A stretch of 41,126 nucleotides of DNA, taken from IMG/VR virus record IMGVR_UViG_3300022885_000039, positions 1 through 41,126 of that record; one strand, 5' to 3'. A program made the translations under genes and the position numbers. Under the pieces are notes generated by a model that saw only the letters and a program-made list of their open reading frames with translations, did no database searches and was not told the DNA's origin. Origin of the DNA: a virus. The number at the start of each line of letters is the position of its first letter. Position 1 is the stretch's first letter. Positions 1 through 19,049 of the stretch are shown piece by piece.

Positions 1-131
1 TCATCTCTCTGCCAAACATCTTCAACAATAACATTATTAGATATACCGACAATATCATTGTATTTGTAAATATCGGGATTGCCGTGCCAAAAATCACCAT
101 AAAATTCTATAATGCACGTATTTTTAACAAT
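1..131 (-). CDS. Vsr-like (EDxHD-type) homing endonuclease fragment, runs off the left edge
   Basis: Reading leftwards from 131, a frame -1 to the uvsX-intein frame encodes IIEFYGDFWHGNP followed by VEDVWQRD. The EFYGDFWHGNP block is the core strand/helix motif of the very-short-patch-repair-like homing endonucleases known from phage introns and from fractured split-intein genes. The frame is open from 131 to the window edge. It has no ATG, GTG or TTG upstream of the motif, and a TAA sits at 134-132, so the N-terminal part of the fold is absent here. Either the gene is truncated, or it is reached by a -1 shift from the intein frame at an A5 run (121-125 on the plus strand). The C-terminus lies outside the window. 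Confidence 0.6.
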   Translation of the reverse strand, partial: MVKNTCIIEFYGDFWHGNPDIYKYNDIVGISNNVIVEDVWQRD

Positions 132-946
132 TTATCGGTTTTTTTAATACGCTGGGCTTCTATATATATTAACCTATCACCGCGTTTCACCAATAGTCTG
201 TGATTTTTCGATAATAGTATTTCGGAATTTTTAGTCTTGATTTTTAGATAAGACGTATGGGTTGTTTCCCATTTGTCTATAACATTTCTAAATCTTCCTA
301 AATGTGTTAAAACTTTATCACCAATACTAATATCGGATAATTTTTTAATTCCTTTATCGGTCGTAATTAACGTGTTAGGGCACAAACACGCCTTTGCCCT
401 ATTTCCCATATCAGGTGCCTCGTTTCCTTCATCCATTTTCTTCTTTTCTTGAGCGGTTATTAAATTACCTACCGAATCGATGGCAATAAGAACCTTTCCG
501 AACAATTTCTTTTCTATAATACTGTTCAGAAATTTAACAATTTGGTTACGACATTTTTCAGTTACTTCAACCGGACAGTGTTTAATTCGGGATACGTCAC
601 ACCCTAACCTTTCCGCCGTTACGGAATCTAGTGCCCCCTCAGTGTCAAAATATGCAACACTCATCCCCTTCTTTTGAGCATTGGCCATGATCTTATTAAT
701 GATGAAAGTTTTACCACAAGATTCGGGACCGATAAAGGCGGTTAATCTCCCCATAGGGACTCCACCATAAACAGAACCCGAAATAATTGTGTTTAGAGCC
801 ATTGATCCAGTATCTATCCATTCTGTTACATTCGATAAAGAATTTTGGTCTAGAAAGGTGGCCTCTGGGTTCATCTCGTCTAATGTCTTGAATGCATCAT
901 TCATCAACTTTAGATCAGCTTTTTCGATAGCACTAGCTTTTGACAT
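107..946 (-). CDS. uvsX: UvsX/RecA-like recombinase, N-terminal half fused to a split-intein N-segment
   Basis: Residues 1-186 are a RecA-fold recombinase that polymerises on ssDNA for strand exchange. Walker A is GPESCGKT (73-80), the DTEGA element is at 101-105 and Walker B VLIAIDS is at 152-158. After GNRAKA the reading frame switches at Cys187 to an intein: block A CLCPNTLITTDKG, block-B-like SKNHRLLV, ending KTDKLLKIRAL and a stop. The intein part is 93 residues, the usual length of a split-intein N-fragment, and it ends where HINT domains are normally split. The recombinase C-half and intein C-fragment are not in the window and should lie beyond position 1. The ATG is 6 nt below a -10-like box. 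A splicing-dead remnant cannot be excluded. Confidence 0.87.
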   Translation of the reverse strand: MSKASAIEKADLKLMNDAFKTLDEMNPEATFLDQNSLSNVTEWIDTGSMALNTIISGSVYGGVPMGRLTAFIGPESCGKTFIINKIMANAQKKGMSVAYFDTEGALDSVTAERLGCDVSRIKHCPVEVTEKCRNQIVKFLNSIIEKKLFGKVLIAIDSVGNLITAQEKKKMDEGNEAPDMGNRAKACLCPNTLITTDKGIKKLSDISIGDKVLTHLGRFRNVIDKWETTHTSYLKIKTKNSEILLSKNHRLLVKRGDRLIYIEAQRIKKTDKLLKIRAL

Positions 947-3068: not shown

Positions 3069-5636
3069 TCAACTGAATAATTCCATGATATCGGTCACAT
3101 ATTCTACCCCGACTTTGGGTGTAGGCCAACCGATAACGGCATAAACTCGGCCAATAACCGGAGAAACCAGTTTTTGATACATCAACTTGTAATCGGGTTT
3201 GATGATATCCATAAATTCTGGTGGATATTCCTCATAAAATGCCATAGATTTGTAGTTGTGTGCATTTTTCAAGGTGTAAAAGAATTTAAACTTGTTGCCG
3301 TTCCCTATTTTCACATATCGATTATCGATTTCAAGTTTTTCCAACATTTTGTTGTAATTGATTGCTGCCTTAGTATGATACGGTGTCCCTTTTGCGAAAA
3401 TATTATCAACATATCCACTTTCACCTTTATCGTAATCATTGACCTTTTTTCTAAATGAAATCTGATCATGGTTCATTGCGCAAAAATCATCGTAACTTTT
3501 TGTAAATAGTTTTCGTGATGCGTTTTCGTCTCTAGACATGATTGCTGTTTCGATATTGTGTTTGATTAGTTTCTTAACATCTTTCGACATGATAGACTTA
3601 GCAACTTCGATCCCTTTATAGATAAATTTATTACACGGAATTCCATCATTGTCCCTAATGTGAAGAATATAGAATTTCTTTTTCTGTAGAACCGCAATAT
3701 CACAGATTTTTTCTCTCTTGAAAAAATACCTTGGATCGGTAGAATTCAATTCTGATATAGCCCATTTTTGAATATGTTCATTTAAATATTCACCATATTC
3801 CTCAATGATCCTTTGAGATTCGTTGGTGATAATATCATCCTTCAATAAGGTTGTATTATGATGAGCTAGTGATTTTGAAAATTGAAAAAATAATGAGTCC
3901 GTATCCGAATATTTACAAACATCATCAAAAGTGCATTCAACACCATCGGATAAAAACTTATCATATAGAATTTGTGCTCCTTGTTTTACAGACGCTTGTC
4001 CGGTCAACGTGATAGATTCTGCATGATCGATATCAAACAATGGAGAATATATCTGACTAAAAATTCCATAGGTAGAGTTTAGAACTACTTTATACACATC
4101 AGAAAGAGTGTTATTATCTGAAATCTTTTCCTCATAAAATTTTATTTTATTAGGATCGGTTTCTATCATTTTAAGTTTACTATATTTAGAGACTTCGTTT
4201 TTGGCATCAACCCGTTGAGCATATAGATTATCAATAAACTTAGGAATGATTCCCTTATTCTTTTGGGAATATAAAACATTAGACTTTGATAAAGACAGTT
4301 CTTCGGTTATAATAAGTTTGTCAAATTTTTCTTTGCTAAGTGTTACCGTTTTATGATTGGATAACAGTAATCGATATTCATCATTATCAAAGCTCGTAAT
4401 TTTGGCTATTTTGGTTTCGGGTGAAATATTAAGTGTAATGATCGTATTGGGATACAGTGAGTTTGCGTCATATGTAACAATGTCTTCATAAAGAGCCGGA
4501 ACGGGTTCTTTGACGTATCCCCCTTCAAATGAAGTCTTTTGATTCTCTACATTAAAGGTTGGTATGATAAGTCCATCTAATGATGCTTGATGGGCTACGG
4601 CACCTGTAATAAGAGAAACCTTACCCATCGCCCTTTCCGGTTGAACGAATCCTTTGTTTGCTAAATTTTTGGTTAATTTTAAAAATTTTAACCTGTTTTC
4701 TAGTTTGATTAGGATGCGTACATCTTGAATATTATATTTTACAAATTTTTCCCAATCTTGGTCGGCTAAATCGGTCAAAGATACTTGGTTGAATGATGTT
4801 TTTTGTTCGCCTAATTCATATTCTGCGATATAATTCAATGCATACGATTCTCGATCACCGAGAGAAAATGTTTTATATACATCCATATAATCTAAATGTG
4901 TAACACCGTAAATGATCCATCTATCTTGTTTTTGTCCTTTAAAATTGACGGATGCATTCGGCCTTAACCAAATTTTACGGACAGGAGATAATCGATCTGC
5001 TTCCTCGTTCCCGATAATTCTTTTGATTCTGTTGATGATATATGGTATATCATAACCCGCACTATTCCAACCAGTCACAATATCGGGATAATCATTTTCC
5101 CAAAATTTTAAAAAATTTTCCAATAAATCTTCTTCGGTCTTACATTTCATGTAAATAACTTCCGATAAATCTGATTTATATGAATTTTTCAATCCCCATG
5201 TATAAAATTTTTGGGATAAGCTATCGTAAATCGTAATCAAATTAATAGGGTCTGTTGCCTCTTCCGGAGATGAAAATTTTCGATCTGTTGCGTATGTCTC
5301 AATATCTAAATAAATCGTTTTTAAAGGATATTCATCATGTATACCATCTTTGTATGAGTCTAGGAGAAACTGTTGTTCGGGTGGAAGATTTCCGAAAACA
5401 CGTTTAATTGGGTTGGTTTCCAAAAATTGTTTCTTTTTGAAGTTGTTCTCGAAAGTAATCTTTTTTAAATCGGTGTTAAAAATTGATTTTCCATCAGGAT
5501 GCGTCGTTTTTGTTTCGATATAAAGGTATGGTTCAAAAGATGTTACCGATTCTATCCGTTTTCCCGAAGAATCCCATCCCCATAAATGAATAGATTCTAG
5601 TTTGCTGTTATAAAAAATATTCCGAAATCCTGTCAT
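3069..5636 (-). CDS. 43: family B replicative DNA polymerase (gp43)
   Basis: 855 residues with the full set of family B motifs. The 3'-5' exonuclease motifs are YLDIETYATD (109-118), IVTGWNSAGYDIPYI (186-200) and YNIQD (301-305). The polymerase motifs are A DANSLYP (390-396), B KVVLNSTYG (516-524) and C YSDTDS (576-581). All carboxylates needed for catalysis and proofreading are present. It is slightly shorter than T4 gp43 (898). It should copy the phage genome with the sliding clamp and the gp44/62 loader; a likely gp62 is at 36615. No intein or intron interrupts motifs A-C. It is expressed from its own near-leaderless promoter. Confidence 0.96.
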   Translation of the reverse strand: MTGFRNIFYNSKLESIHLWGWDSSGKRIESVTSFEPYLYIETKTTHPDGKSIFNTDLKKITFENNFKKKQFLETNPIKRVFGNLPPEQQFLLDSYKDGIHDEYPLKTIYLDIETYATDRKFSSPEEATDPINLITIYDSLSQKFYTWGLKNSYKSDLSEVIYMKCKTEEDLLENFLKFWENDYPDIVTGWNSAGYDIPYIINRIKRIIGNEEADRLSPVRKIWLRPNASVNFKGQKQDRWIIYGVTHLDYMDVYKTFSLGDRESYALNYIAEYELGEQKTSFNQVSLTDLADQDWEKFVKYNIQDVRILIKLENRLKFLKLTKNLANKGFVQPERAMGKVSLITGAVAHQASLDGLIIPTFNVENQKTSFEGGYVKEPVPALYEDIVTYDANSLYPNTIITLNISPETKIAKITSFDNDEYRLLLSNHKTVTLSKEKFDKLIITEELSLSKSNVLYSQKNKGIIPKFIDNLYAQRVDAKNEVSKYSKLKMIETDPNKIKFYEEKISDNNTLSDVYKVVLNSTYGIFSQIYSPLFDIDHAESITLTGQASVKQGAQILYDKFLSDGVECTFDDVCKYSDTDSLFFQFSKSLAHHNTTLLKDDIITNESQRIIEEYGEYLNEHIQKWAISELNSTDPRYFFKREKICDIAVLQKKKFYILHIRDNDGIPCNKFIYKGIEVAKSIMSKDVKKLIKHNIETAIMSRDENASRKLFTKSYDDFCAMNHDQISFRKKVNDYDKGESGYVDNIFAKGTPYHTKAAINYNKMLEKLEIDNRYVKIGNGNKFKFFYTLKNAHNYKSMAFYEEYPPEFMDIIKPDYKLMYQKLVSPVIGRVYAVIGWPTPKVGVEYVTDIMELFS

Positions 5637-5670
5637 GGTTAGAGTTTATCACAATGAATGGAATTGTCAA
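5637..5670 (-). promoter_or_regulatory. near-leaderless promoter of gene 43
   Basis: On the minus strand, TTGACA (5670-5665), a 16-bp spacer and TAAACT (5648-5643) stand 6 nt above the polymerase ATG. It diverges from the HNH-associated RNA that begins at 5687. Confidence 0.65.
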
Positions 5671-5678
5671 GAGGTACG

Positions 5679-5688
5679 ATAAGTAGAT
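5679..5688 (+). promoter_or_regulatory. late-promoter-like box ATAAGTAGAT before RNA copy A
   Basis: ATAAGTAGAT immediately precedes and slightly overlaps the outer strand of helix P1 of the RNA element. It resembles the ATAAGTAATT boxes found before late-type genes in this window. By analogy with T4, transcription would start a few nt into P1. Confidence 0.35.
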
Positions 5689-5764
5689 AGACAGGAGTAA
5701 GGATATGTATCGAGAAAATACCTATCCGACCGAAATAATTAAAACGGTTTGTCCTCCTGCCTAT
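5687..5764 (+). ncRNA. HNH-associated three-way-junction RNA, copy A
   Basis: Helix P1 pairs ATAGACAGGAG (5687-5697) with CTCCTGCCTAT (5754-5764), with one A-C mismatch. A TAA joint follows, then P2 (GGATA/TATCC and GTAT/ATAC, 5701-5727, loop CGAGAAA), a GA joint, and P3 CCG/CGG (5730-5747) with an A-rich loop. The joint TTTGTC leads back to P1. Copies B and C keep the same layout with different paired sequences, so the helices covary. It ends 9 nt before the HNH start codon. I do not recognise it as a named RNA class. It lacks hammerhead core motifs and is too small for a group I intron. Confidence 0.75.
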
Positions 5765-5773
5765 AAAATAATT

Positions 5774-6556
5774 ATGAATACTGATACAGAACTCAAGGAG
5801 AAAAATGATGATCTCAAACCGCCGTTTGATCGTAAAAAATATATGAGCGATTATAGTAAAAAATATTATGAGAAAAATAAAGATGATATAAAACAATACC
5901 ATAAAATGTATTACGACGATAATTCCGACGCAATTAAAAATACTGTTAAAATAAATAGAAATAAAAATTTATCTCGTTGTAAAGATAGTTGTAAAAAATA
6001 TTATGATAATAATAAAGAAAAAATTAAGGAATATCAGAGAATATATCAAGAAAAGAATAAAGAAAACCTTAAAAAATATCGGATAGAATATAAAAAGAAT
6101 AATACCGAACTTATTAAAGAATCAAGTAAAAAAAGTTATCAAAAACATAAAGATTTTTTGAAAATTAAACAATACAAATACCAAAAAAACCGACTTGATA
6201 CCGACCCATCATATAAATTATTAAAAACGTTAAGACGCAGAATATTAAATGCTTTAAAGGGGAGTTCTATAAAAAAATCACGACGAACTTTGGATCTGTT
6301 GGGTTGTGATATTGTTTTTGCAAAACAGCATCTAGAATCTAAATTCGGAGAAGGTATGTCATGGGACAACCACGGAACGCACGGTTGGCACATAGACCAT
6401 ATTAGACCGTGCGTGTCTTTTGATCTTTCAGATCCCGAACAACAACGCGAATGCTTCCATTATACAAATCTACAACCACTGTGGGCATCGGAAAATCTAT
6501 CTAAAGGTGCGAAATTTACCCCAATTTCTGATCAGGATTCAGTTCAATTAGCCTAG
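5774..6556 (+). CDS. free-standing HNH homing endonuclease A
   Basis: 260 residues from the ATG at 5774. An upstream ATG at 5705 lies inside the RNA hairpin and is rejected. Residues about 20-165 are Lys/Tyr/Asn-rich repeats of the type KKYYEKNKDD, KEKIKEYQRIYQEKNKE, probably a long basic coiled helix that grips nucleic acid. A conserved LLGCDIVFAKQHLESKF block follows, then the HNH core WHIDHIRP (205-212), FHYTNLQPLW and SENLSKG. The family makes nicks or double-strand breaks that drive gene copying into cognate sites. Its last 41 nt overlap the convergent glycosyltransferase gene. Its C-terminal half is nearly identical to copy B. The ATG follows the RNA element by 9 nt. Confidence 0.88.
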   Translation: MNTDTELKEKNDDLKPPFDRKKYMSDYSKKYYEKNKDDIKQYHKMYYDDNSDAIKNTVKINRNKNLSRCKDSCKKYYDNNKEKIKEYQRIYQEKNKENLKKYRIEYKKNNTELIKESSKKSYQKHKDFLKIKQYKYQKNRLDTDPSYKLLKTLRRRILNALKGSSIKKSRRTLDLLGCDIVFAKQHLESKFGEGMSWDNHGTHGWHIDHIRPCVSFDLSDPEQQRECFHYTNLQPLWASENLSKGAKFTPISDQDSVQLA

Positions 6557-7835
6557 GAGACATTTCATTGCGTTCTTTTGATCCAAAAGATGTATAATAT
6601 ACCGCACAATATTCTTGTATATGATCCTCTAACCACATACCCTCTACATATTTTCGAGAACGTTCGGATGCACCCATATAAGTGTCTAAGTCTCCGGTGA
6701 TGTGTTTCAATTGATCGATCAAGTCTGAACCATTATCGAATTTATATTCTGCATTATCGTATGTACATAGGTTTTGGAAAGCTCCGGGTATTCCGAGAGC
6801 ACCCGATTCTATGGTTTTGATATTGGATTTACTCTTGTTAAAGATATTCCGGGTTAACGGCGCGTAAACTGCCTGACATCCAGTATCATAAATTCCTTGT
6901 GGGAGATCCATTAAAGGACTCCAATCAACAAACATCATTTCCCCATTGTCTATGTATGGCTTGAGTTGGATAGGATAACATCCCTTGAAAACAAATTTAA
7001 AATCTTTTCGAGCTTTAATAATAGATTGTAGAACGAATTCAAAATCATCTTTACCATTGGTTTTATTCAGAACATCGATGTGGGTTCCAGATCCAGCATA
7101 AAGAATTCTCGGACGTTTTTTATTTTCTTTCCAAAGTCTTTCGATTCTTTCGGGATGATAAAATCGGTCGAGCCAGAACCGTGGAGCATAGTTAGGCACA
7201 ACCGTAACATTTTTATTACCAGTCTTATTTTTATAATATTCCTTCATGAAAGGACATGTCACGGTAATTTCATCCATCATTCCCATAATTTCCATGATAT
7301 TATCTGTGATTTTTTTATCAACAAATGCCTCTTTACATCTATTGTAGTCTGGAATGTCTTCGGAAAAAACAATATCATCAATTTCGTATATTAGTTTCAA
7401 TCCAGTTTGTTCTCGGAGTTTTGTAAGTTCTTTAATGAATTGATTTTGGTGGTCGGTTGCTTGTCTCTGCATTCTGACAGATTTTAATGGTAAATAAAAC
7501 TTAACATCGGTGATCATTTGAGTCAATGTTGACAATATTCCTTTATTGTAAGAATTCATAACCATTTCAGGCCACATAAGTCTCCAATATCCACATCCAC
7601 CCATATCTGCTGCGTAGTTTAGTGATCTTGGTAAACCAGTTTCAGGCATTTCGATTGCTGGTGCAGCAGGAATCTTAATAACCTTTGCTCCAACATAAGA
7701 GAATGTTGGTAATCCAACGGGCGAACCTTGAGGTAGATTAGGAATTCCAGCCCTTAGTGGTTGATATTCGTAGACAACACTACTATCTGGATGTGTTAAA
7801 ATTTGAGGTTTATTTTCTCGGATTGTAATAGCCAT
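6516..7835 (-). CDS. glycosyltransferase, GT-B-like
   Basis: 439 residues. The features are those of GT-B sugar transferases found in T4-like phages: MGGCGYWRLMWP (about 98-109) near the acceptor side, LIYEIDDIVF, VTVVPNYAPRFW, RILYAGSGTHIDV, and a donor-site region KSNIKTIESGALGIPGAF near residue 345. There is no signal peptide or membrane anchor. It should move a sugar from a nucleotide donor to an unknown acceptor (DNA base, virion protein or host glycan). It is flanked on both sides by HNH endonuclease genes on the opposite strand and overlaps copy A at its 3' end. It is separated by endonuclease B and gene 46 from the main glycosyltransferase cluster. Confidence 0.72.
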   Translation of the reverse strand: MAITIRENKPQILTHPDSSVVYEYQPLRAGIPNLPQGSPVGLPTFSYVGAKVIKIPAAPAIEMPETGLPRSLNYAADMGGCGYWRLMWPEMVMNSYNKGILSTLTQMITDVKFYLPLKSVRMQRQATDHQNQFIKELTKLREQTGLKLIYEIDDIVFSEDIPDYNRCKEAFVDKKITDNIMEIMGMMDEITVTCPFMKEYYKNKTGNKNVTVVPNYAPRFWLDRFYHPERIERLWKENKKRPRILYAGSGTHIDVLNKTNGKDDFEFVLQSIIKARKDFKFVFKGCYPIQLKPYIDNGEMMFVDWSPLMDLPQGIYDTGCQAVYAPLTRNIFNKSKSNIKTIESGALGIPGAFQNLCTYDNAEYKFDNGSDLIDQLKHITGDLDTYMGASERSRKYVEGMWLEDHIQEYCAVYYTSFGSKERNEMSPRLIELNPDQKLG

Positions 7836-7892: not shown

Positions 7893-7960
7893 AACAAGAG
7901 TAAGAAATATTATCTTATGAATAGTATTTCGACCGGAATAACTCGGGATGTCCTCTTGTT
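7893..7960 (+). ncRNA. HNH-associated three-way-junction RNA, copy B
   Basis: P1 pairs AACAAGAG (7893-7900) with CTCTTGTT (7953-7960), 8 bp perfect. A TAA joint follows. P2 pairs GAAATATTA (7904-7912) with TAGTATTTC (7922-7930), including one G-T pair, around a 9-nt loop. After a GA joint, P3 is CCG/CGG (7933-7946) with loop GAATAACT, then joint GATGTC. P1 inner pairs GAG/CTC, the G-C pair opening P2, and the GAAYAA-type loop are shared with the other copies, while most paired positions differ compensatorily. The HNH ATG is 11 nt downstream. Confidence 0.78.
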
Positions 7961-7971
7961 CAAATATAATT

Positions 7972-8676
7972 ATGAATAACAAAGAAAAAATCCAATCGGA
8001 TACATTAGATAGAGAAAAATATCTCCAAAAACGTCGAGAATCTTATATAAGAGATAAAGATAAAAGGAAAATTTATCTATTAAAAAATTGTGATCGAATA
8101 AAAGAAGTAAGAAAATCTTATAAAAACTCAAATTCTGAAAAAATAAAATCCCAAAATAAAGAATATAGAGATAATCATAAAAATCATATACGAGATTATA
8201 ACCGAGAATATTATATCAACAATGTAGAAAATATTGATAGATGGATCAACCAAAATCAGGAAAAAATTAAAGGTTACAAAAGAAAATACCAAGAAAAAAT
8301 TAAACCTATTCGTGGTAAGCTTAGGAAAGAAAAAATTTTAAAAAATCCGGTTTATAAACTTGAGGAAACCCTTAGAGGTAGATTATATTCAGCAATCAAA
8401 TCACAATCAACGAGAAAATCCCAAAAAACTATGGAACTATTAGGATGTTCTTCCGATTTCGCTAAAAAACATTTAGAATCACAATTCCGTGACGGAATGA
8501 GTTGGGACAATCACTCCCTTTTCGGATGGCATATCGACCATATAAGACCATGTGCTTCATTCGATCTTTCAGACCCAGAACAACAGAAAGAATGTTTCCA
8601 TTATACCAATCTACAACCCCTATGGGCATCTGAAAATCTTTCTAAAGGTGATAAATTTATAACCGCAAAGACGTAA
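7972..8676 (+). CDS. free-standing HNH homing endonuclease B
   Basis: 234 residues from the ATG at 7972. An earlier in-frame ATG at 7948 lies inside the RNA element. It has the same architecture as copy A: a Lys/Tyr/Asn-rich N-terminal half with motifs such as REYYINNVENI and GYKRKYQEKIK, then LLGCSSDFAKKHLESQF, HNH core WHIDHIRP (186-193), FHYTNLQPLW and SENLSKG. The N-terminal halves of A and B have diverged far more than the C-terminal halves. The sequence around the ATG (ATAATTATGAAT) is shared with copy A. The last 20 nt overlap the convergent gene 46. It is predicted to cut DNA at a nearby target lacking the element. Confidence 0.88.
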   Translation: MNNKEKIQSDTLDREKYLQKRRESYIRDKDKRKIYLLKNCDRIKEVRKSYKNSNSEKIKSQNKEYRDNHKNHIRDYNREYYINNVENIDRWINQNQEKIKGYKRKYQEKIKPIRGKLRKEKILKNPVYKLEETLRGRLYSAIKSQSTRKSQKTMELLGCSSDFAKKHLESQFRDGMSWDNHSLFGWHIDHIRPCASFDLSDPEQQKECFHYTNLQPLWASENLSKGDKFITAKT

Positions 8677-10498
8677 TACCATCTTTCTTTACCAATAAAA
8701 GAGTGTCGTCAATATCAAACTTAGAAGTGTTTGGATTGTGACTAACTAGATACACACATAGATTGTTTTTAATAACCAAATCTCTTAAAATTTCTAATAT
8801 TTTTCCCAACCCTTTTTCAGAGACGGCACTATCAAACAATTCATCAGCAACGAAAAGATTAAAATTGATACCAGTATGTTGTCGAAGTAAATCTTGGAAC
8901 GTGAATATAATTGCTGAGTCAACTCTCTTACGTTCACCACCAGATAAATTCCAGTAATCTATTTCTTTTCCGGTTAAGGTGGTGATCGTATTATCAAATG
9001 TCTCATCGAATAAAACAGAGCACGGTGCATCCAAAATCGTTAGATAATGATTCAATCTACTATTCAAAAATGTTAAGATTTTTTTGATGATAATAGTTTT
9101 AACACCGTCTTCACTAACAACGGCTTTGGCATGATCGAGAATATCCAATCGTTTATATAATTCCTTTATATCTTTTTGATATTCGACTATTTTTTCTTCT
9201 GATTCGTTGATTAATACATCATAATTGTTACCTTTATTCTTTTCATTTGATATATAGATCAAAAGTCCTTCGTTTTTAGTCTCGATAATTTTAATCTTAT
9301 TATCTAAACCAGTAAGTCGATCAATTTCTTTTTGAAGAGTTATGATATCATTTTTTAATTGGGCCTTTATTACCACAACATCACCTAATGATTTTTTCTC
9401 AATTTTTATTTCATCATCTATCGGAACAATAGATGTTCTAACACTTTGGATATGTGTGTTATATTGGGTTAATTCTAAATCAAGTTCTTTTATACGATCT
9501 TCGGTCCCACAATTATCTTCTGCATAAGGTCTTTTACATGAAGGACATTCACCAGTAGTTTTTTGAAGCTTTTTAATTTCTACTTTTTTAAAATCTATAG
9601 AGTTTTCAGCTTGTTCAATATCTCGGGTAAGTAATCTTTTTTGATCGATCAGAATATCGATCTTACCTTCGATTTCAGGAATTGTGAAATCTACTTTTAT
9701 ATTCAATTCTGAAGTTTTTTCATCTATTAACTTTTTACAATTGGTTAAAAGTTTCTCAACATCTTTATCTCGATTTTGTAGATTTTTGATCTCTAATTTG
9801 TTGGTCGATATTTGATCTTCCAATTCCTGAATAGCCTTTTCCTTTTCTTTTTGAAAAATTATCTTGCGGTTTTTATATCCTTCGAGATTCTTTTGTTCGT
9901 TGATGAATAGTGCTGTAGTAGTATCGGATTCCTTTTTGGTCTCGATATAATCTTTTCGGATCTTCAATAACATTTCACCAAAAATACTAAGATCCATAAC
10001 ACCTTCGATAAATTTTCTTTTGGTGATTTTATTTTGAGCCATGAACGGAATAGTTTTATCATTGGTCAAAACTACCGAATTTTTAAAGACTTCTTCGTTC
10101 ACACCGATCAGATCTTTAATGTAATCATTATTCTTATCGATTGTAGAGATGGTGATAACTTCTGAACCACGCTTTATTTCGACCGAGGATGGGTCTAAAA
10201 CTCGTTTGATCGTATATTCTATATCATCAACCGACAGAACCAAATATCCACCACATTCACCTTTTGTAATATTGTTAGAAATTTGTGATTTTTTGAGATT
10301 TGTGATGGTCTCACCAAAAACAACCCAATAGATAAAATTAAGAATAGTGGTTTTACCGATACCATTCTTACAACCAATATTATCCAAATTTTCTCCGGTG
10401 ATAATATTTATACCTTCGGTGAATTTGATCTTTAATGGATCAGAACCAACCGATAAAAAATTTTGAAAAGATATTTCTTTAAATTTTACGGACTTCAT
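8657..10498 (-). CDS. 46: recombination nuclease subunit gp46 (Rad50/SbcC-like)
   Basis: 613 residues of SMC/Rad50 layout. Walker A is GCKNGIGKTT (42-51), followed by coiled-coil arms around a zinc hook CPSC (about 316-319), the ABC signature LSGGERKR (about 516), Walker B FVADELFD (about 550) and a terminal LVSHN switch. With gp47 it forms the ATP-driven nuclease that resects DNA ends for recombination-dependent replication. Its ATG overlaps the FkbM-like gene stop by 4 nt, so here it is the last gene of the glycosyltransferase operon. In T4 it adjoins gene 47; here 47 begins 10.2 kb away. Confidence 0.94.
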   Translation of the reverse strand: MKSVKFKEISFQNFLSVGSDPLKIKFTEGINIITGENLDNIGCKNGIGKTTILNFIYWVVFGETITNLKKSQISNNITKGECGGYLVLSVDDIEYTIKRVLDPSSVEIKRGSEVITISTIDKNNDYIKDLIGVNEEVFKNSVVLTNDKTIPFMAQNKITKRKFIEGVMDLSIFGEMLLKIRKDYIETKKESDTTTALFINEQKNLEGYKNRKIIFQKEKEKAIQELEDQISTNKLEIKNLQNRDKDVEKLLTNCKKLIDEKTSELNIKVDFTIPEIEGKIDILIDQKRLLTRDIEQAENSIDFKKVEIKKLQKTTGECPSCKRPYAEDNCGTEDRIKELDLELTQYNTHIQSVRTSIVPIDDEIKIEKKSLGDVVVIKAQLKNDIITLQKEIDRLTGLDNKIKIIETKNEGLLIYISNEKNKGNNYDVLINESEEKIVEYQKDIKELYKRLDILDHAKAVVSEDGVKTIIIKKILTFLNSRLNHYLTILDAPCSVLFDETFDNTITTLTGKEIDYWNLSGGERKRVDSAIIFTFQDLLRQHTGINFNLFVADELFDSAVSEKGLGKILEILRDLVIKNNLCVYLVSHNPNTSKFDIDDTLLLVKKDGITSLRL

Positions 10499-11109
10499 TT
10501 TTTAGTTAATACCAAATTTTCACCATTATGTGACGCGATATTGTATAACGGGCTAAATTTTGACATCAATTGATTTTGTCTAAAATCATGTTCAATACAA
10601 ATACAAGCTGGTTGAACTTGTTCAAGATCCAATGTCATCGCCAAATCAGCCGAGAAACCCTCAACATCTATAGATAGAAAATTAATTTCTGATGACCTTT
10701 TCAGGACATCACTGATAAGAGTTTTTAGATCAATTGAAGGAAGTAAAAGTTCTTTACTATTCTGTTCAAATTCATCCTTATCGATAAAATATTTTTTAGC
10801 ATGATCTTTATCCACCGAAGATACGGCAGAAAAGGGATATTCAAAAAAAGATGTTAGACCATTGGTTTCTTCCAACGTGATAAGGGATTGGATAAGATTA
10901 ACCTTATCATTTCCTTTATATGCTTCGAAAAGTTTCGTTACACAAAACGGCGAAGCATCCACTAAGAAAGCACTCCAACCTTTTTCGATCAGTGCTTTGG
11001 AATTGGAAAACGTTGTGCTATCATAAGCACCAATTTCTAACAGTGTTCCACCATTAAAATCTTTAAAATATTCTAAGAAAAAATCATCTTCATCGTTCTG
11101 ACTATACAT
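10495..11109 (-). CDS. FkbM-family methyltransferase
   Basis: 204 residues. LLEIGAYDST (23-32) is the SAM-binding loop, WSAFLVDASP is the second acidic strand, and INFLSIDVEGF (about 142-152) with CICIEHDFR is the typical FkbM ending. The family O-methylates small molecules or sugars, so a role in capping or decorating the glycan made by the neighbouring glycosyltransferases is plausible. It is translationally coupled to gene 46 (4-nt overlap) and follows the 11120-11797 gene after a 10-nt gap. It is single-domain and complete. Confidence 0.8.
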   Translation of the reverse strand: MYSQNDEDDFFLEYFKDFNGGTLLEIGAYDSTTFSNSKALIEKGWSAFLVDASPFCVTKLFEAYKGNDKVNLIQSLITLEETNGLTSFFEYPFSAVSSVDKDHAKKYFIDKDEFEQNSKELLLPSIDLKTLISDVLKRSSEINFLSIDVEGFSADLAMTLDLEQVQPACICIEHDFRQNQLMSKFSPLYNIASHNGENLVLTKK

Positions 11110-11119
11110 GAGATCATTA

Positions 11120-11797
11120 TTACATACCTTGTGTGACTAAGCAAGTTTTTTCTTCATATGATCCATCGCCTCTACGGTATTGGAAAAATTGACCATTCTC
11201 ATCTAATAGTCCCAATTTATTGGCTATAAGACTTAGACCGCTTTGATCATGTCTATGACCACAACATCTAGGGTCTATGGATTCTGTATTGCCAGAATTA
11301 TCCCATGAACCTTTAAAATATGGAACAGCTTTTCCGAATTCTTGGAAAAATTCGGAAAATTTAGGGTGATGTGTATTTATACCATAACACCCACTATAAA
11401 TGTGTCGAGTTCTTTCAGCATCATCCCGACTTATATCAAAATGTTTTAACATATTATCGTTCGTCCATTGTGCATTGTTGTATTCAGACCACACGAAGAA
11501 ATAACCATTTTCATCTAGGTGTTGAAAAAGTGGGTCGATGGATTTGATCGCATACATCGAACAATCGGCCCATATAATATTCTCATACCCCAAATCTACA
11601 GCGTGTTTAAAGGCATAGTATTTGAAAGCATAATGAATCTCTTGATGGTGTGGGCTATTAATATCGGAATAGTTACCTATAAACAAAAAATCGAAATCAT
11701 ATTCGGGGTTAAATGATTTTACGGTTTGGTATAAACGGTCTTGCCCTCTCGGATACCAAGCACCATTAGCAAAATTTAGTAAACACGACTTTTTCAT
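11120..11797 (-). CDS. glycosyltransferase-like protein, GT-A type
   Basis: 225 residues. It starts KKSCLLNFANGAWYPRGQDRL. It contains NIIWADCSMYAIKSIDPLF, where WADCS takes the place of the DxD metal/nucleotide motif, then YSGCYGINTHHPKF and DPRCCGHRHDQSGLSLIANKLGL. The RHDQS-LSLIA element is typical of small GT-A-like sugar transferases, where it follows the acceptor loop. No membrane segment is seen. Neighbours on both sides are sugar-transfer or methyl-transfer genes in one tight operon. The exact family is not certain, and neither donor nor acceptor can be read from the sequence. Confidence 0.55.
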   Translation of the reverse strand: MKKSCLLNFANGAWYPRGQDRLYQTVKSFNPEYDFDFLFIGNYSDINSPHHQEIHYAFKYYAFKHAVDLGYENIIWADCSMYAIKSIDPLFQHLDENGYFFVWSEYNNAQWTNDNMLKHFDISRDDAERTRHIYSGCYGINTHHPKFSEFFQEFGKAVPYFKGSWDNSGNTESIDPRCCGHRHDQSGLSLIANKLGLLDENGQFFQYRRGDGSYEEKTCLVTQGM

Positions 11798-12591
11798 TTG
11801 TAAAACCTCATAAAGTCACCATCTTTATAACACTGAGAAACTCCTTCTAAATTTGCCCGATAAATGATGGGAATTATCCCACCATTACCAGAGTGGGTTA
11901 CAATCTTTTTACATTTTGATATGATTCGCATGATTGATTCGTAGTCAATCGCCCACTGAACCTTATCCCTATGTGGTGTTACATAACCATCCCTGAAAAT
12001 CATTTCATCAAATGTAAACCCAGACTCACCATAAGCATCTAAGAACCCATCTTTAAAAGACTTTTCATCTGTCTGTATTAATATGCGAAATGGTTCATCC
12101 GTTTCACCCCTAATGTTATCGATCCACCAACCAAGAGGTCTTAATGTAGCCTCTATACCCTTATCGGTTCCTCGGTGAAAAATTGCCAATGTGTTAGAGT
12201 AATCTATATCATATTTTTTTTCTAGTTCGACGACCCTCTCTTGGACATAATCCGATGGTAAAAAATAAGCGTTTTCAACCTTTGAGGCATCATCATAATC
12301 TAACCAACTAAGATTTAACTCCGTTGGGCAAAAATATTCAAAGTCAAAGTCTTCCGATTTTATAGATTCCATAGACTCTTCACATTTTTTATATAGGATA
12401 GGATACAAGTCTTCATTACCCCGATACCACCCTAATGTTTCCGAAAATGATATATCTTTAGGATATATCTTATGGGTCACAAGTTTATATAAGGTGTTTC
12501 TTACTTCATTGATGCATGAATAAAACCCTGAATGGTGTGTTCCATACAAAATTTGTGTTATTTCGTCATATCGAGAATGAAATAAATGCAT
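11794..12591 (-). CDS. possible GT-B (fucosyltransferase-like) protein
   Basis: 265 residues. LAIFHRGTDKG (about 133-143) resembles the HxRRGD-type donor loop of fucosyltransferases. Later segments FRILIQTDEKSF and KIVTHSGNGGIIPIIYRAN correspond to the strand and nucleotide-binding end of that fold. Conservation is weak, so this is a fold-level guess. It overlaps its downstream neighbour by 4 nt and its upstream neighbour by 1 nt, and so is part of the glycosyltransferase operon. It has no signal peptide or TM. It could instead be an unrelated nucleotide-sugar-binding protein. Confidence 0.4.
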   Translation of the reverse strand: MHLFHSRYDEITQILYGTHHSGFYSCINEVRNTLYKLVTHKIYPKDISFSETLGWYRGNEDLYPILYKKCEESMESIKSEDFDFEYFCPTELNLSWLDYDDASKVENAYFLPSDYVQERVVELEKKYDIDYSNTLAIFHRGTDKGIEATLRPLGWWIDNIRGETDEPFRILIQTDEKSFKDGFLDAYGESGFTFDEMIFRDGYVTPHRDKVQWAIDYESIMRIISKCKKIVTHSGNGGIIPIIYRANLEGVSQCYKDGDFMRFYK

Positions 12592-13856
12592 TAGTTATAT
12601 GAAGTTGTAGTTGATCTGTTAAAAATGTAAAAATGCAAAATTTTATCGATCCGGTGTTCGGTCTTGGCGATCTTGCAAAGTTGTTCTAACCAAAACCAAT
12701 CCTCGGTCTTAGATATATCTGGAAATTTTACCTGTTTGGTAATCTTGGTGTTCCAAACACACATATGAAATGGTTTCCTGTGTATAACACTGTTCTGACA
12801 ATACTCTTCGTTGTCGTATTCTAAACCAAACTTGATTATTGATGGGGCATCATCATTGATAAACGTTTTTTGTTTGAATGTAATCACATCGATGTTAGAA
12901 TCTTTATTGATTGCCTCATATATCTCTTTGATGTAATCATCGGAAATATCATCATCATCATCGACAAAGGCAATAAAATCCCCCATTGCGATGTCTAAAA
13001 GGGCTTGTCTCTTGGCACCCACCGACCTATGTTTGTTATCAATCAGTGCCAAGACTTCTATTTCGGTGTTTTTATCTAAATCGGTAATCTGTTTATCCAA
13101 TTTATCAACCAATTTGTTAAGTTTATCCGCTCGTTCGGGGATACCTAAAAGTAGAACCGAAAATTTTGTAGAATTTAACACCAAATCGAAGTTACGTTCT
13201 GATCGTTTCTTATATGTTTCGTTATCGATGTTATAATATGACTCATTCCTAACATAAAGTTCATCATAACCAGATTTTTGGTAAGCAGGGTGTTGGTGTT
13301 CTATGATAACCTTATCAGATTTATAAACTTTATTTAACTGAATTGCTACATCGGTGTGTTCATTATCACACCATAAGCTTATATAGTCAGGATGGTATAT
13401 ATAACCGAGCCTATCATAATATTTTTTTCCTAGAATCGAAAGTGTGCTGATATTGCTCTGTCCACCATCATTATACCATAGGACTCCATCCATATCACGG
13501 AAATGGTCGTTCATATCCTTTCTAATGATGTAATCATACCCCTTGACCACAGGTATCATATCATCAGAAGCAAGAAGAACTATATCCCATCCAGATACGG
13601 TATCCATGTCAGCATTGATTGCCTCAATTTTGGTTTTACTATCACCAAAAAAATATAATAGTTTACACCTTTTCTTATAAGATTCTAATCGATCAACGCA
13701 ACCATTCATTGAAACGTCATCAGAATCTAGAGTTATCAGGAATGCAATCTTTGATATATCTTCGGCCATATCAATATATCTATCTAATGCAGTAAAAAAT
13801 TTCTCGGGTCTTCCCCTAGTGGGAAATTTGATTAGTAGTTTAGGATCTGTTTCCAT
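12591..13856 (-). CDS. two-domain GT-A (family 2-like) glycosyltransferase
   Basis: 421 residues. The N-terminal domain has FPTRGRPEKF, ITLDSDDVS and VLLASDDMIPV. The C-terminal domain starts about 230 with KFSVLLLGIPERADKL and carries VGAKRQALLDIAMGDFIAFVDDDDDISDDYI, with the DDDDD metal-binding run near residue 300. Both halves look like GT-A folds, so this is probably a bifunctional or duplicated transferase. The C-terminal domain closely resembles the next gene upstream (IPIGKKRNDLL and YVCFVDDDDVIS), suggesting duplication and fusion. The gene is in the middle of the operon and leaves only a 1-nt gap to its upstream neighbour. Confidence 0.75.
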   Translation of the reverse strand: METDPKLLIKFPTRGRPEKFFTALDRYIDMAEDISKIAFLITLDSDDVSMNGCVDRLESYKKRCKLLYFFGDSKTKIEAINADMDTVSGWDIVLLASDDMIPVVKGYDYIIRKDMNDHFRDMDGVLWYNDGGQSNISTLSILGKKYYDRLGYIYHPDYISLWCDNEHTDVAIQLNKVYKSDKVIIEHQHPAYQKSGYDELYVRNESYYNIDNETYKKRSERNFDLVLNSTKFSVLLLGIPERADKLNKLVDKLDKQITDLDKNTEIEVLALIDNKHRSVGAKRQALLDIAMGDFIAFVDDDDDISDDYIKEIYEAINKDSNIDVITFKQKTFINDDAPSIIKFGLEYDNEEYCQNSVIHRKPFHMCVWNTKITKQVKFPDISKTEDWFWLEQLCKIAKTEHRIDKILHFYIFNRSTTTSYN

Positions 13857-13857
13857 T

Positions 13858-14406
13858 TTATCGATTATTGTTGTATGGATAATAAAAATATATCGGTTCT
13901 TTAATATACACTTCGGTCTTCAAATGTTCTTTAACTCTCTTTGAAAAATCAACATCTTCATGATATGATATATCCGGAAATCCCACAAAACAGGCGATAT
14001 CGCGTTTGATTGGATTCAGATGGTTAGGACATCGATAATATATATCATTTTCTTCGAACCAATCATCATATTGGATCGAATGTATAAATTTTCTAGGTCC
14101 GATATTTTTTTGAATTATAATCCCTTCTAACCCAACACAATCGGGTTTGGATTCAATAGCTTCCAGTATCTTACTAACATAAAATGGTGATATAACATCG
14201 TCGTCATCAACAAAGCACACATATTCCCCCCTAGAATTGTTCAACAAATCATTTCTTTTCTTCCCTATAGGGATTGCGCCATCATCGATGTTTGCCAATA
14301 TCTCAACATCGCTATTACCTTGCATTTTTAATTGGTTTCCGAGATGTAATAGAAGTTCTTTCCGTTCCTTCAACCCACAAATTAATATAGATAATTTTTT
14401 ACTCAT
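13858..14406 (-). CDS. GT2-like glycosyltransferase, short
   Basis: 182 residues. It has LSILICGLKERKELL at the N-terminus, ANIDDGAIPIGKKRNDLL, the metal motif VDDDDVIS (about 91-98), a HEDVDFSKRV catalytic-side segment near 155 and a Tyr-rich tail. It is about the length of a minimal GT-A domain. It is paralogous to the C-terminal domain of the 12591-13856 protein, which it precedes in the operon. It overlaps the upstream tagged gene by 4 nt (ATGA), so translation is likely coupled. Donor and acceptor are unknown. Confidence 0.75.
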   Translation of the reverse strand: MSKKLSILICGLKERKELLLHLGNQLKMQGNSDVEILANIDDGAIPIGKKRNDLLNNSRGEYVCFVDDDDVISPFYVSKILEAIESKPDCVGLEGIIIQKNIGPRKFIHSIQYDDWFEENDIYYRCPNHLNPIKRDIACFVGFPDISYHEDVDFSKRVKEHLKTEVYIKEPIYFYYPYNNNR

Positions 14407-15110
14407 TTATGTAATAAAATTTGAGTCGAATCGTTGCCTGATTCAATTCCACCCTTAATATATTCAAAATATATGGGAGATTCGACACCAATAAAGGTAT
14501 AAAATGTTTTAAGATTCGTCATATATGTTTCGTTCGGCATATCTCCCCATATTGACACATAAGATGCGTCTAAATCCCGATGTTTAGGAAAAATACATCC
14601 AGAATAATCATGTCTCATCTCTTTTCGATAGTCAAAAGTATCTCCAAATAAGAATAGAACGTCATCGGGTATTCCTTTTTTTCTAATAATATCGCCAAAC
14701 AATATCGAATGGGATTTAATTCTAGATACTGTAGAATAATAAAATCCCGTTCCGTTAATATTTGTCGTAAATATAATGCAACGGTCGGCATATTCGTTTC
14801 GATCATAGATTTTCCCATCGATTGCCCCTCTCACCGCATCGGGAGACTCGTTATATAAGAATTTTCGATAGAAAAATGAATTTTTTCGTAATACTTCGGG
14901 GGTTTTATCAATTTCCCAATTTTTTCCGTGTGCATATACCGAAAATCTACCCCATATTTTTAAATCGGATGCTTCTAGAATATATTTTAAGTCAGATTTT
15001 TCATTTTTATCATCAGATGATATGAAATTTTCAGCAAAAAATTCGAGATATTTACGATCTTCGATCTTTTCATATGCTTCGGTAAGAGTTTTGGTATCTA
15101 TATCATTCAT
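14403..15110 (-). CDS. unknown protein with N-terminal LxEAY helix tag
   Basis: 235 residues. The first 17 residues, MNDIDTKTLTEAYEKIE, match the tag on the proteins at 16682, 20081, 20304 and 20620 (D-T-x-x-L-x-E-A-Y). The body has no motif I recognise: it holds SVYAHGKNWEIDKTPE, CIIFTTNINGTGFYYS, LFLFGDTFDYRKEM and SYVSIWGDMPNETYM. It overlaps the neighbouring glycosyltransferase genes by 4 nt at each end, so it is made with them. The tag ends in possible prohead-protease sites (LTE, KIE), which may mean packaging into the virion, but the operon is not obviously late. Confidence 0.7.
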   Translation of the reverse strand: MNDIDTKTLTEAYEKIEDRKYLEFFAENFISSDDKNEKSDLKYILEASDLKIWGRFSVYAHGKNWEIDKTPEVLRKNSFFYRKFLYNESPDAVRGAIDGKIYDRNEYADRCIIFTTNINGTGFYYSTVSRIKSHSILFGDIIRKKGIPDDVLFLFGDTFDYRKEMRHDYSGCIFPKHRDLDASYVSIWGDMPNETYMTNLKTFYTFIGVESPIYFEYIKGGIESGNDSTQILLHK

Positions 15111-16567
15111 AATTTGATTTTGTAGTGTTTATATTTCCTTTTATCGTCATAATTAATGATAAATCTGGAAATGTCAAGATTATTTACTCCATTATCTTCC
15201 AATAGTGTTAAGCCCTCGATTTCGGATTTCCATTTTTCAGAATTTTTAAGATGTTGTTCGTGTGCGCCGGATATTTCTAAACGATGTTGGTGGGGGGTTG
15301 AAAAATATTTACCAAATGGGTGTTGATAGATTGTTAATCCTTTTCTAATAATTCGATGGTGTAGACACGAATCCTCTTTACCCCACCCAACATAATCATT
15401 TGGATATCCATTCACCATTTGGAAATGTTCTTTCTTAAAAAGAACAACACCACCCATAATTGCCGCAGGATCTTCGATATAATTGAATTGACTACAATAT
15501 TTGCTCAAATGTGTGGGATTTTTAGGGTAAGAATAATCAGAAAATGTTGGAATTAGATCCACATCATGAATACAGTGATAATCAGAGTCCTGATTCAATA
15601 AAAATCCGAGATTATTGAGCAATCCCTTATTAAAAAGTTCATTATCATCTTGTTCTATGACCGAAATATCGAAGTTTTGGACCTGTCGGGCTATATATTC
15701 ATGTAAAATCGGAACAACGGTCTTTAAAGCCTCTTCTCGGTCCCTATAAGGTATGATCACAGACAACTTCTTATCGGTATTTACCAGTTTCTTTCTTGAT
15801 AGTCGGGTTTCGATATCGATTAATGTTTTTTCTAACCCCTTTATCCCGACATCGGTAATTTCGTTGGTGAAATGTCCATGTTTTTTGATGAAATAAGACG
15901 CTGATCGGTCCCAATTCTCTTTATAGTTGGGTTTATTTGTGATTGTGCTATTTTCATCAGATCCTTTGATGGTGGTGAGGTATTTTTCAGAGTTTAATAC
16001 ATCAGGAAAATACCAAAAATTTGGATTTAATGCTTTTTTTGATAAATCATAAGAGTACGATATATGTTCGAAGCTATTGACCATATTTTCATCATATAAT
16101 CCTATTTTTTTAAAAATATTGGAATGTGTATAACAAAAAGCAGCTTGGGGGTTCCTATATAGACCCAATGACGCCCCATTCGTTGATGTGTATGTATATT
16201 GTAAAGATTTCTCATTTCCAGCAACTTTTTCGAACGAAAGTTGATATATTCCAAAAATATTTGCGGTATCTATGTATTTTTGGAACACATTATGGTCCGT
16301 AATAATTACATCGTCGTCCATAGTGAATATATCAGTACATCCAACATCTAAAAGTTTTTCAATCCCCCTATTTTTAGCCCATGCTACACCATTTTGTTTA
16401 TCGGAAGTGATAATATGGTCAGCGTCCGACGGATTTGTATAATGGAAGGTTCCGTCATTAACAATAACAAAAAAATCTATGACATTTCTCGGAATAGCCG
16501 ACAACACCTGTTCATAATAATCTTTTCTATTGAATGTCGTGAGACACAACCCTATTTTTTTTACCAT
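15107..16567 (-). CDS. two-domain glycosyltransferase: GT2-like plus beta-1,4-galactosyltransferase (GT7)-like
   Basis: 486 residues. Residues 1-250 are a GT2-like domain with LCLTTFNRKDYY, VVNDGT, GVAWAKNRGIEKLL and the metal motif FTMDDDVIITD (near 81). Residues 265-470 resemble the beta4GalT fold: SVIIPYRDREEALK, HCIHDVDLIPTF, AIMGGVVLFKKEHF, VNGYPNDYVGWGKED, with the DVD and WGKED motifs in the right order. One polypeptide may thus add two successive sugars. It is first in an operon running through gene 46 and lies downstream of a near-leaderless promoter with an AGG Shine-Dalgarno remnant. Its N-domain is paralogous to the 17533 and 19036 proteins. Confidence 0.8.
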   Translation of the reverse strand: MVKKIGLCLTTFNRKDYYEQVLSAIPRNVIDFFVIVNDGTFHYTNPSDADHIITSDKQNGVAWAKNRGIEKLLDVGCTDIFTMDDDVIITDHNVFQKYIDTANIFGIYQLSFEKVAGNEKSLQYTYTSTNGASLGLYRNPQAAFCYTHSNIFKKIGLYDENMVNSFEHISYSYDLSKKALNPNFWYFPDVLNSEKYLTTIKGSDENSTITNKPNYKENWDRSASYFIKKHGHFTNEITDVGIKGLEKTLIDIETRLSRKKLVNTDKKLSVIIPYRDREEALKTVVPILHEYIARQVQNFDISVIEQDDNELFNKGLLNNLGFLLNQDSDYHCIHDVDLIPTFSDYSYPKNPTHLSKYCSQFNYIEDPAAIMGGVVLFKKEHFQMVNGYPNDYVGWGKEDSCLHHRIIRKGLTIYQHPFGKYFSTPHQHRLEISGAHEQHLKNSEKWKSEIEGLTLLEDNGVNNLDISRFIINYDDKRKYKHYKIKL

Positions 16568-16600
16568 AACCTACCTTATCATCTTTTTTTAAATTGTCAA
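16568..16600 (-). promoter_or_regulatory. promoter of the glycosyltransferase-gene 46 operon
   Basis: On the minus strand, TTGACA (16600-16595), 16 bp, TAAGGT (16578-16573), then 5 nt to the ATG. The -35 and spacer are made of the decayed 3' coding end of an HNH endonuclease. Confidence 0.6.
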
Positions 16601-16640
16601 TCCACCAAAGAAGTTGTAAATTAGTGTAATGAAAAATTAT
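16575..16640 (-). pseudogene. HNH endonuclease C-terminal remnant D
   Basis: The minus-strand frame encodes FHYTNLQLLWWIDNLKKDDK, which aligns with FHYTNLQPLWASENLSKGDK of the intact HNH proteins A and B. The HIDH core and the whole N-terminal half are missing, and no RNA element is seen beside it. It is the tail of a former homing endonuclease gene on the same strand as, and directly upstream of, the glycosyltransferase operon. Its DNA now carries that operon's -35 and spacer. Confidence 0.75.
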
Positions 16641-16666
16641 TTTTGTATGGATATCACTCAAAAAAA

Positions 16667-16680
16667 TATAAATATAAATA
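16667..16680 (+). promoter_or_regulatory. two overlapping T4-type late boxes
   Basis: TATAAATA occurs at 16667-16674 and again at 16673-16680, ending 1 nt before the ATG at 16682. The upstream copy would start transcription at or just before the ATG. Confidence 0.55.
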
Positions 16681-16681
16681 T

Positions 16682-18342: not shown

Positions 18343-19049
18343 AATGTATTTTTTATCTTGTTGGGATGTATATTTTTTAGAACGAATCCTGCATAACATT
18401 TTCCTTTGACATGATCGAATGATTCATCGACAAATACATCTTGTGATATATCAAATAATTCTAATATAGACATTTCTGCTATATTTTTATGATCTGATAA
18501 AACCATTTTAAATTTTTCCACTGGTCTAATAGTTTTAGATATGAGTATATAAATCCGATTGCCTTCGTGTTTAAACAATGTTTTACTCGTTCTAGGAGTG
18601 ATCCCAATTTTCTTAATTTTTTCTAGATTAATTGTCGGTGTGATATGATAAAAATTTATAGATGGTGGGAATTCGCCATAACGGACCGGATATTTAGGTT
18701 CTATAGTAACATCATATTCCTCTTCCACCGATTTATCATATGTTATAAAATATCCATAAAGACTTAGAATTTTATTCAGAGCATCTGTATTGGGTTTAGT
18801 TTTAAAGGTGATAAAAATACTATTAGCCTTCCCATATTTTGATGGATTGGTTGGAAATAATGGACAGTCTTCGATATATTTTACATCATTTGAATATGTT
18901 TGTGATATTTTAGATATCAATTGTTTGGAATCGTAAGAAACTATCAGACCTTCCTCCAATATATTCTTTTCTCTGGTCATAGTTTGTAAATTATTTTTAA
19001 GAATTTTATTCGCAAAATAAGTCCTTAAATTTTTATTATGATTTTGCAT
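18339..19049 (-). CDS. unknown protein with an ADP-ribosyltransferase-like segment
   Basis: 236 residues. INFYHITPTINLEKIKKIGITPRTSKTLFKHEGNRIYILIS (about 128-170) resembles the H-T-x7-I-x4-G-L-x-P core of Tpt1/KptA and other ADP-ribosyltransferase-like folds found in phages. Without a clear catalytic Glu motif this stays a guess. A possible internal start at 18980 (MTREKNILEEGL) would resemble the LxEAY tag. The gene overlaps the upstream degenerate glycosyltransferase by 14 nt and the downstream one by 4 nt, so the three are co-translated. If it is an ADP-ribosyltransferase it could modify host proteins early in infection, as T4 Alt does. Confidence 0.55.
   Translation of the reverse strand: MQNHNKNLRTYFANKILKNNLQTMTREKNILEEGLIVSYDSKQLISKISQTYSNDVKYIEDCPLFPTNPSKYGKANSIFITFKTKPNTDALNKILSLYGYFITYDKSVEEEYDVTIEPKYPVRYGEFPPSINFYHITPTINLEKIKKIGITPRTSKTLFKHEGNRIYILISKTIRPVEKFKMVLSDHKNIAEMSILELFDISQDVFVDESFDHVKGKCYAGFVLKNIHPNKIKNTL

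What the first reader, a model, noticed from the sequence alone, without database searches (positions are those of the whole stretch)
1..946. Fractured uvsX: split-intein N-half followed by a Vsr-like homing endonuclease
UvsX stops after a 93-residue HINT N-segment that ends at the usual split point. The next coding DNA is an EFYGDFWHGNP-type endonuclease. This is the fractured-gene layout reported for other T4-like replication genes: N-extein/IntN, free endonuclease, IntC/C-extein. The uvsX insertion point, after GNRAKA close to the nucleotide-binding core, would make recombination wholly dependent on trans-splicing.
Basis: partly seen in the sequence, partly recalled or inferred. Interest (0 to 1): 0.8.

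Follow-up and report, generated by a model that had tools for sequence, protein, structure and literature searches.

The report
Fractured phage uvsX, endonuclease mostly deleted
This phage keeps its DNA-recombination gene in two separate pieces whose proteins are predicted to be stitched together by a split intein, and this copy has lost most of the selfish cutting-enzyme gene that usually sits in the gap, a loss that seems to leave the stitching parts intact.

Summary
The window is a 41-kb virus record that stops inside the uvsX locus. Near-identical contigs extend past position 1. Two of them (L003, L004) carry the complete fractured gene: UvsX-N/IntN (283 aa), a free 370-aa endonuclease with a C-terminal Vsr/I-Bth0305I-like domain, and IntC/UvsX-C (IntC 55 aa, ending SHN|C).

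The window and contig L002 carry a different allele. An 876-bp deletion between two 9-bp repeats (TTAAAAATA) removes the end of IntN and endonuclease residues 1 to about 273, including the invariant Asp271. So the 'endonuclease' at the window edge is a dead remnant. IntN becomes 93 aa (ending KIRAL), the same length as natural IntNs in relatives. In L002, IntC/UvsX-C is untouched.

Five more lineages have uvsX split at this place, one of them one codon earlier. Three keep the endonuclease; one has none; one has a remnant interrupted by an IS607-like element. Every IntN and IntC is intact. Two near relatives (exteins 85% identical) have only 49%-identical inteins, so the element has moved.

This is a new member of a known kind (fractured genes), with a clear view of endonuclease loss after the split. 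Trans-splicing was not tested.

The parts
389..946 (-). UvsX N-extein (186 aa, ends ...GNRAKA)
   Evidence: PF00154 RecA E 1.2e-17; PHROG 97 UvsX-like recombinase E 1.1e-33 for the same 186 residues in L003; 64% (L131) and 63% (L132) identical to relatives
107..388 (-). IntN, 93 aa plus stop: C1 LCPNTL, block-B-like LLSKNH, ending ...DKLLKIRAL; the last residues after KI are created by the deletion (the intact allele ends KISSEILKM, 97 aa)
119..127 (-). Deletion junction: single remaining copy of the 9-bp repeat TTAAAAATA; 876 bp present in L003/L004 are missing here
1..127 (-). 3' remnant of the free-standing Vsr-like endonuclease gene (residues from about 274 on), frame different from IntN; continues in contig L002 to position 386, where it overlaps the IntC/UvsX-C start (L002 349)

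Best explanation
The window end is part of a fractured uvsX gene. UvsX is made as two polypeptides, N-extein/IntN and IntC/C-extein. The two intein halves associate, fold as one HINT domain and splice the exteins in trans, giving ...GNRAKA-CKSMLRAITH.... In the complete allele (L003, L004) a free 370-aa homing endonuclease with a C-terminal Vsr/I-Bth0305I-like nuclease domain lies between the halves and would spread the split cassette into intact uvsX alleles during co-infection. The window and L002 are a derived allele in which recombination or slippage between two 9-bp repeats deleted 876 bp: the last residues of IntN and the first about 273 residues of the endonuclease. The deletion spares the IntN core and the whole IntC/UvsX-C gene, so trans-splicing should persist while homing activity is lost. 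Shown by sequence: the layout, the deletion, its junction, the conserved splicing residues, and recurrence in five other lineages. Inferred: trans-splicing, past homing, and that both alleles live together in the phage population.
For: Contigs 100% identical to the window extend it and contain IntC/UvsX-C. L003 and L004 carry the full three-gene layout. Class-1 residues are present: C1, block-B-like S..H, block-F-like D, penultimate H, terminal N, +1 C. TIGR01443 intein_Cterm is above its cut-off in L131, L028 and L196, and below it in L003 (12.9 vs 15.6 bits). The same site is split in L131, L132, L028 and L196, and one codon earlier in L043. IntN and IntC are under purifying selection (L131/L132: IntN pN 0.13 vs pS 0.63; IntC 0.12 vs 0.82). 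The endonuclease model matches Vsr 1cw0 (Z 12.4) and I-Bth0305I 3r3p (Z 10.9, 97 of 97 residues). The window's 93-aa IntN is as long as those of L043 (93) and L028 (92), and the latter has no endonuclease. L043 and L028 exteins are 85% identical but inteins 49% (p 9e-16), so the element was replaced horizontally.
Against: No splicing or homing was measured. The IntC of the window's own lineage scores below the TIGR01443 cut-off, and its block-F histidine is replaced by Glu. IMG/VR records are fragments, so a second intact uvsX cannot be excluded. The AlphaFold model of the N-half has low confidence (pLDDT 58) and does not test the HINT fold. Both contigs with the deletion end within about 130 bp of the junction, so a sequencing or assembly artefact is not fully excluded.
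Confidence: 0.9

Rival explanations
1. The 876-bp deletion is an artefact: template switching between the 9-bp repeats during library amplification, or an assembly error at a contig end. The real phage has only the intact allele seen in L003/L004.
For: Both contigs with the junction (window, L002) end within about 130 bp of it. L003 and L004 show the intact form with otherwise identical sequence. The name of the window's own record is not shown, so I cannot prove that it and L002 come from different samples.
Against: Two separately assembled contigs carry the same junction to the base, and the 9-bp repeat is too short for a usual assembly k-mer to create the join. The window ends 127 bp after the start of the shared right-hand sequence, the length expected if an assembly graph with k = 127 branched there because both alleles were present (inference).
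Confidence: 0.15
2. The two halves of UvsX are not spliced but assemble non-covalently into a working recombinase, as reported for the split NrdA of phage Aeh1; the intein parts are relics.
For: Split NrdA and split gp43 function without splicing (PMC2988022).
Against: IntN and IntC keep the splicing residues in six lineages and are under purifying selection about as strong as the exteins. They also survive when the endonuclease is lost (L028, L196).
Confidence: 0.05
3. The locus is a pseudogene: uvsX is broken and recombination is supplied by another protein.
For: The reading frame is interrupted and no intact uvsX is seen in the window.
Against: Both halves are complete open frames in each lineage, and synonymous changes far exceed non-synonymous ones. 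IntC/UvsX-C is intact right after the deletion.
Confidence: 0.03

Closest known systems
Fractured genes with split inteins and a free endonuclease (Dassa et al. 2009, doi 10.1093/nar/gkp095; paper not held here, content from memory and from later papers that cite it)
   Same: Conserved DNA-metabolism enzyme broken by a split intein of about 95 + 50 aa at the usual split point, with a free endonuclease gene between the halves; Vsr-related endonuclease
   Different: The gene here is uvsX; whether that paper already lists uvsX could not be checked. The window allele has lost its endonuclease by a repeat-mediated deletion.
AceL NrdHF split intein (PMC7891396)
   Same: Fractured-gene organisation in a lake metagenome; 98-aa IntN and 48-aa IntC; endonuclease between
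   Different: That is a class 3 intein (Ala1, internal Cys) with a GIY-YIG endonuclease in nrdHF; this one has Cys1 (class 1 layout) and a Vsr-like endonuclease in uvsX.
gp41-1 split intein (PDB 6qaz)
   Same: Best intein match of IntN among solved structures (E 0.013)
   Different: Different host gene and site; sequence similarity is weak.
I-Bth0305I / Vsr endonucleases (PDB 3r3p, 1cw0)
   Same: C-terminal domain fold of the 370-aa endonuclease: Z 10.9 and 12.4; invariant D271 and E281-x-x-x-D285-x-x-H288 in the family alignment
   Different: Only 11-16% sequence identity over the domain; extra Cys-rich N-terminal part and a DUF7487 segment; not encoded in a group I intron.
Split nrdA of phage Aeh1 with mobE (reviewed in PMC2988022)
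   Same: Endonuclease gene splits a T4-like phage gene into two reading frames
   Different: No intein; the two polypeptides work without being joined.

Membership tests
Fractured gene (split intein plus free endonuclease) | Conserved enzyme gene broken into N-extein/IntN and IntC/C-extein reading frames on one strand | tested here: met
   L003 8248..7397, 6298..5486; same in L131, L132, L043, L028, L196
Fractured gene (split intein plus free endonuclease) | Free-standing endonuclease gene between the halves | tested here: inconclusive
   Met in L003, L004, L131, L132, L043; in the window and L002 only the 3' remnant is left after an 876-bp deletion
Class 1 intein | Nucleophilic Cys/Ser at position 1, block B T/S-x-x-H, terminal His-Asn, C/S/T at +1 | tested here: met
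   C1, S60-x-x-H63, SHN|C, invariant in the first five lineages; L196 has THN|C; block-F His is Glu or Ser in five lineages and His in L196
Class 1 intein | Splices its exteins | not testable with these tools
   needs expression of both halves
Vsr-related homing endonuclease family (type I-Bth0305I) | Vsr-like fold with conserved acidic and His residues | tested here: met
   1cw0 Z 12.4, 3r3p Z 10.9 over 97 residues; D271, E281, D285, H288 invariant in 23 sequences
Vsr-related homing endonuclease family (type I-Bth0305I) | First Glu of the EDxHD motif | tested here: inconclusive
   wider family consensus SKIExEF; the uvsX-linked members read SKIAKDF/SKIAKKF/SIISQKF; residue-by-residue structural match not made
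Vsr-related homing endonuclease family (type I-Bth0305I) | Cuts the intein-free uvsX allele | not testable with these tools
   no biochemical data
UvsX recombinase | RecA/UvsX core spread over both halves | tested here: met
   PHROG 97 in both halves, E 1.1e-33 and 2.5e-21

The most novel reading that the evidence does not exclude
Fractured uvsX is a selfish element sitting in the recombinase that its own homing needs. The halves persist after endonuclease loss as a stable two-piece gene, in L028 perhaps as two separately transcribed units with a terminator-like hairpin between them, so that trans-splicing becomes a permanent, possibly regulating step in phage recombination. Swapped, poorly compatible inteins (L043 vs L028) would also penalise recombinants that mix halves from two phages.
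Probability: 0.2. Interest if true: 0.7.

Novelty: new member of a known kind. Interest (0 to 1): 0.45.

Why it matters
It adds a split recombinase to the fractured genes of T4-like phages (whether uvsX was already on the published list could not be checked) and shows, among near-identical contigs, an intact allele beside one whose endonuclease has been deleted. Together with a lineage that has no endonuclease and one with an IS607-like insertion in the remnant, it fits the homing-cycle model: splicing parts stay under selection while the endonuclease decays. For tool makers, six natural IntN/IntC pairs (92-97 + 46-55 aa) are on hand to test.

Tried and rejected
Sequencing frameshift inside one continuous intein-plus-endonuclease ORF: rejected, because the intact allele has separate reading frames with their own stops and starts. 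Endonuclease as first gene past the edge in full: rejected by the deletion. IntN search in cultured phages: none of the 60 listed records (62 matched) carries a uvsX/RecA annotation, so no cultured example was found; many of them have no annotation. PDB sequence search with the endonuclease: no relative; only the fold search found Vsr. AlphaFold of the window protein: low confidence; RecA is found, and the HINT part is not tested. Sample identity of the contigs through papers: no hits. Dassa 2009 and the I-Bth0305I paper are not held. Promoter scan of L003: not clearly above shuffles; the terminator-like sites found there are on the strand opposite to uvsX.

Full report
What was checked. The window is the whole of one IMG/VR record (41,126 bases, linear fragment). 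Its first 946 bases, read on the minus strand, encode a UvsX/RecA N-half of 186 aa followed by 93 aa of intein sequence and a stop; the EFYGDFWHGNP reading frame then runs off position 1 in another frame.

What lies beyond the window. A 35-base search with the window's first bases found three near-identical contigs: L002 (IMGVR_UViG_3300022842_000414), L003 (3300022851_000272) and L004 (3300023240_001224). L003 and L004 have a complete fractured gene: UvsX-N/IntN of 283 aa (L003 8248..7397, minus), a free endonuclease of 370 aa (7373..6261) and IntC/UvsX-C of 270 aa (6298..5486), whose first 55 aa end in GIISHN before CKSMLRAITH. The endonuclease gene overlaps the IntC gene by 38 bp. The next gene looks like a gp41-type helicase (named from its translation, not searched).

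The window allele is a deletion allele. The window is 100% identical to L003 up to L003-oriented position 5800 and again from 6668; the two stretches share a 9-bp sequence TTAAAAATA, of which one copy (window 119-127) remains, so 876 bp are missing. L002 has the same junction and continues into an intact IntC/UvsX-C. The deletion replaces the IntN tail KISSEILKM by KIRAL and removes endonuclease residues 1 to about 273. In an alignment of 23 related endonucleases Asp271 is invariant, so the remnant should be inactive. The IntN core is untouched: the new IntN has 93 aa, and the natural IntNs of L043 and L028 have 93 and 92. I infer that splicing is preserved. The right-hand shared stretch in the window is 127 bp long, which would fit an assembly with k = 127 that stopped where both alleles meet; this is inference.

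Relatives. Searches with the three parts found five further lineages split at the same place in uvsX. L131 (3300032287_003869) and L132 (3300036399_001297) have the full layout, endonuclease 46-47% identical to L003. L043 (3300032116_001024) has it at 36%, with the intein one codon earlier (RAK|C ... HN|CIKSMM). L028 (3300042332_001447) has no endonuclease; the gap of about 180 bp between the IntN stop and the first ATG of the IntC frame holds a 14-bp terminator-like hairpin. L196 (3300001525_000224) has an endonuclease remnant without its N-terminal part, interrupted by an IS607-like element (serine resolvase PF00239 and a TnpB-like protein, PF07282). IntN and IntC are intact in all of them. 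Most relatives are intein-free: of 85 distinct uvsX loci for which both halves could be placed, 82 are continuous through this site, so homing targets exist. Searching the records that carry the split gene with an intact UvsX gave only its two halves (the C-half alone in L002).

Selection and mobility. Between L131 and L132, IntN has pN 0.13 and pS 0.63, IntC 0.12 and 0.82, much like the exteins. L043 and L028 have exteins 85% identical but inteins only 49% identical (Fisher p 9.4e-16); the intein was most likely exchanged after the exteins diverged, which is evidence of horizontal movement. In the extein tree L043 and L028 are sisters (100%); in the intein tree they are not (support 62, weak).

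The endonuclease. No PDB sequence relative was found, but the AlphaFold model (pLDDT 78; C-terminal domain mostly above 90) matches Vsr (1cw0, Z 12.4, 127 residues) and the I-Bth0305I catalytic domain (3r3p, Z 10.9, 97 residues). PF24308 (DUF7487) is the only Pfam hit above cut-off, in the middle part.

Mechanism. Shown: anatomy, deletion, conserved splicing residues, purifying selection, divergence of inteins between near-identical exteins. Inferred: IntN and IntC associate and splice by the class 1 path; the intact endonuclease cut intein-free uvsX in co-infections and spread the cassette through recombination repair; after spread, the endonuclease is free to decay. That is the homing cycle described for inteins and introns (PMC1654191). 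In T4, intron homing needs RecA or UvsX (PMC2988022), so this element sits in a gene its own spread may depend on.

Place among known systems. The organisation is that of the fractured genes (Dassa et al. 2009; the term is used in the same sense in PMC7891396). I recall that the 2009 paper reports several DNA-synthesis and repair enzymes and a Vsr-related endonuclease family, but it is not in the library, so I cannot say whether uvsX is among them. I file this as a new member of a known kind.

Limits. No splicing data; all records are fragments; the deletion rests on two contigs whose ends are near the junction; the sample names of the contigs could not be tied to a paper.

Noticed in passing
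L028 5701-7619 (IMGVR_UViG_3300042332_001447): The gp41-like helicase gene next to the endonuclease-free fractured uvsX is itself split by an intein without an endonuclease: the N-half/IntN ends at 7098 and the IntC/C-half ORF 7082-7619 reads ...DILTKN|SIGLAATCDVICSLWQ (penultimate Lys instead of His). Two adjacent split genes in one phage.
   Followed up: partly
L196 4528-6471: IS607-like element (serine resolvase plus TnpB-like gene with a Cas12f1-like TNB domain) inserted inside the decaying endonuclease of a fractured uvsX; its ends were not mapped to the base.
   Followed up: partly
window 5705-6556 (+) and 7948-8676 (+): Two paralogous free-standing proteins (47% identical over 250 aa) with the C-terminal motif HIDHIRPC.SFDLSDPEQQ, HNH-like in appearance but without a Pfam match; a glycosyltransferase-like gene lies between them.
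   Followed up: partly
window 10495-19806: Long run of glycosyltransferase-like and related genes, mostly on the minus strand, near the replication genes (impression from the translations; no family search was run on them).
   Followed up: no
L043 4540-4541 and 6073: Intein of L043 sits one codon upstream of the site used in the other lineages.
   Followed up: partly
L003 7383-7426: Two imperfect 21-bp tandem copies (TTAAGTATTTCGCTCGACATT on the + strand) at the end of IntN and start of the endonuclease gene; possibly a trace of how the endonuclease entered.
   Followed up: no
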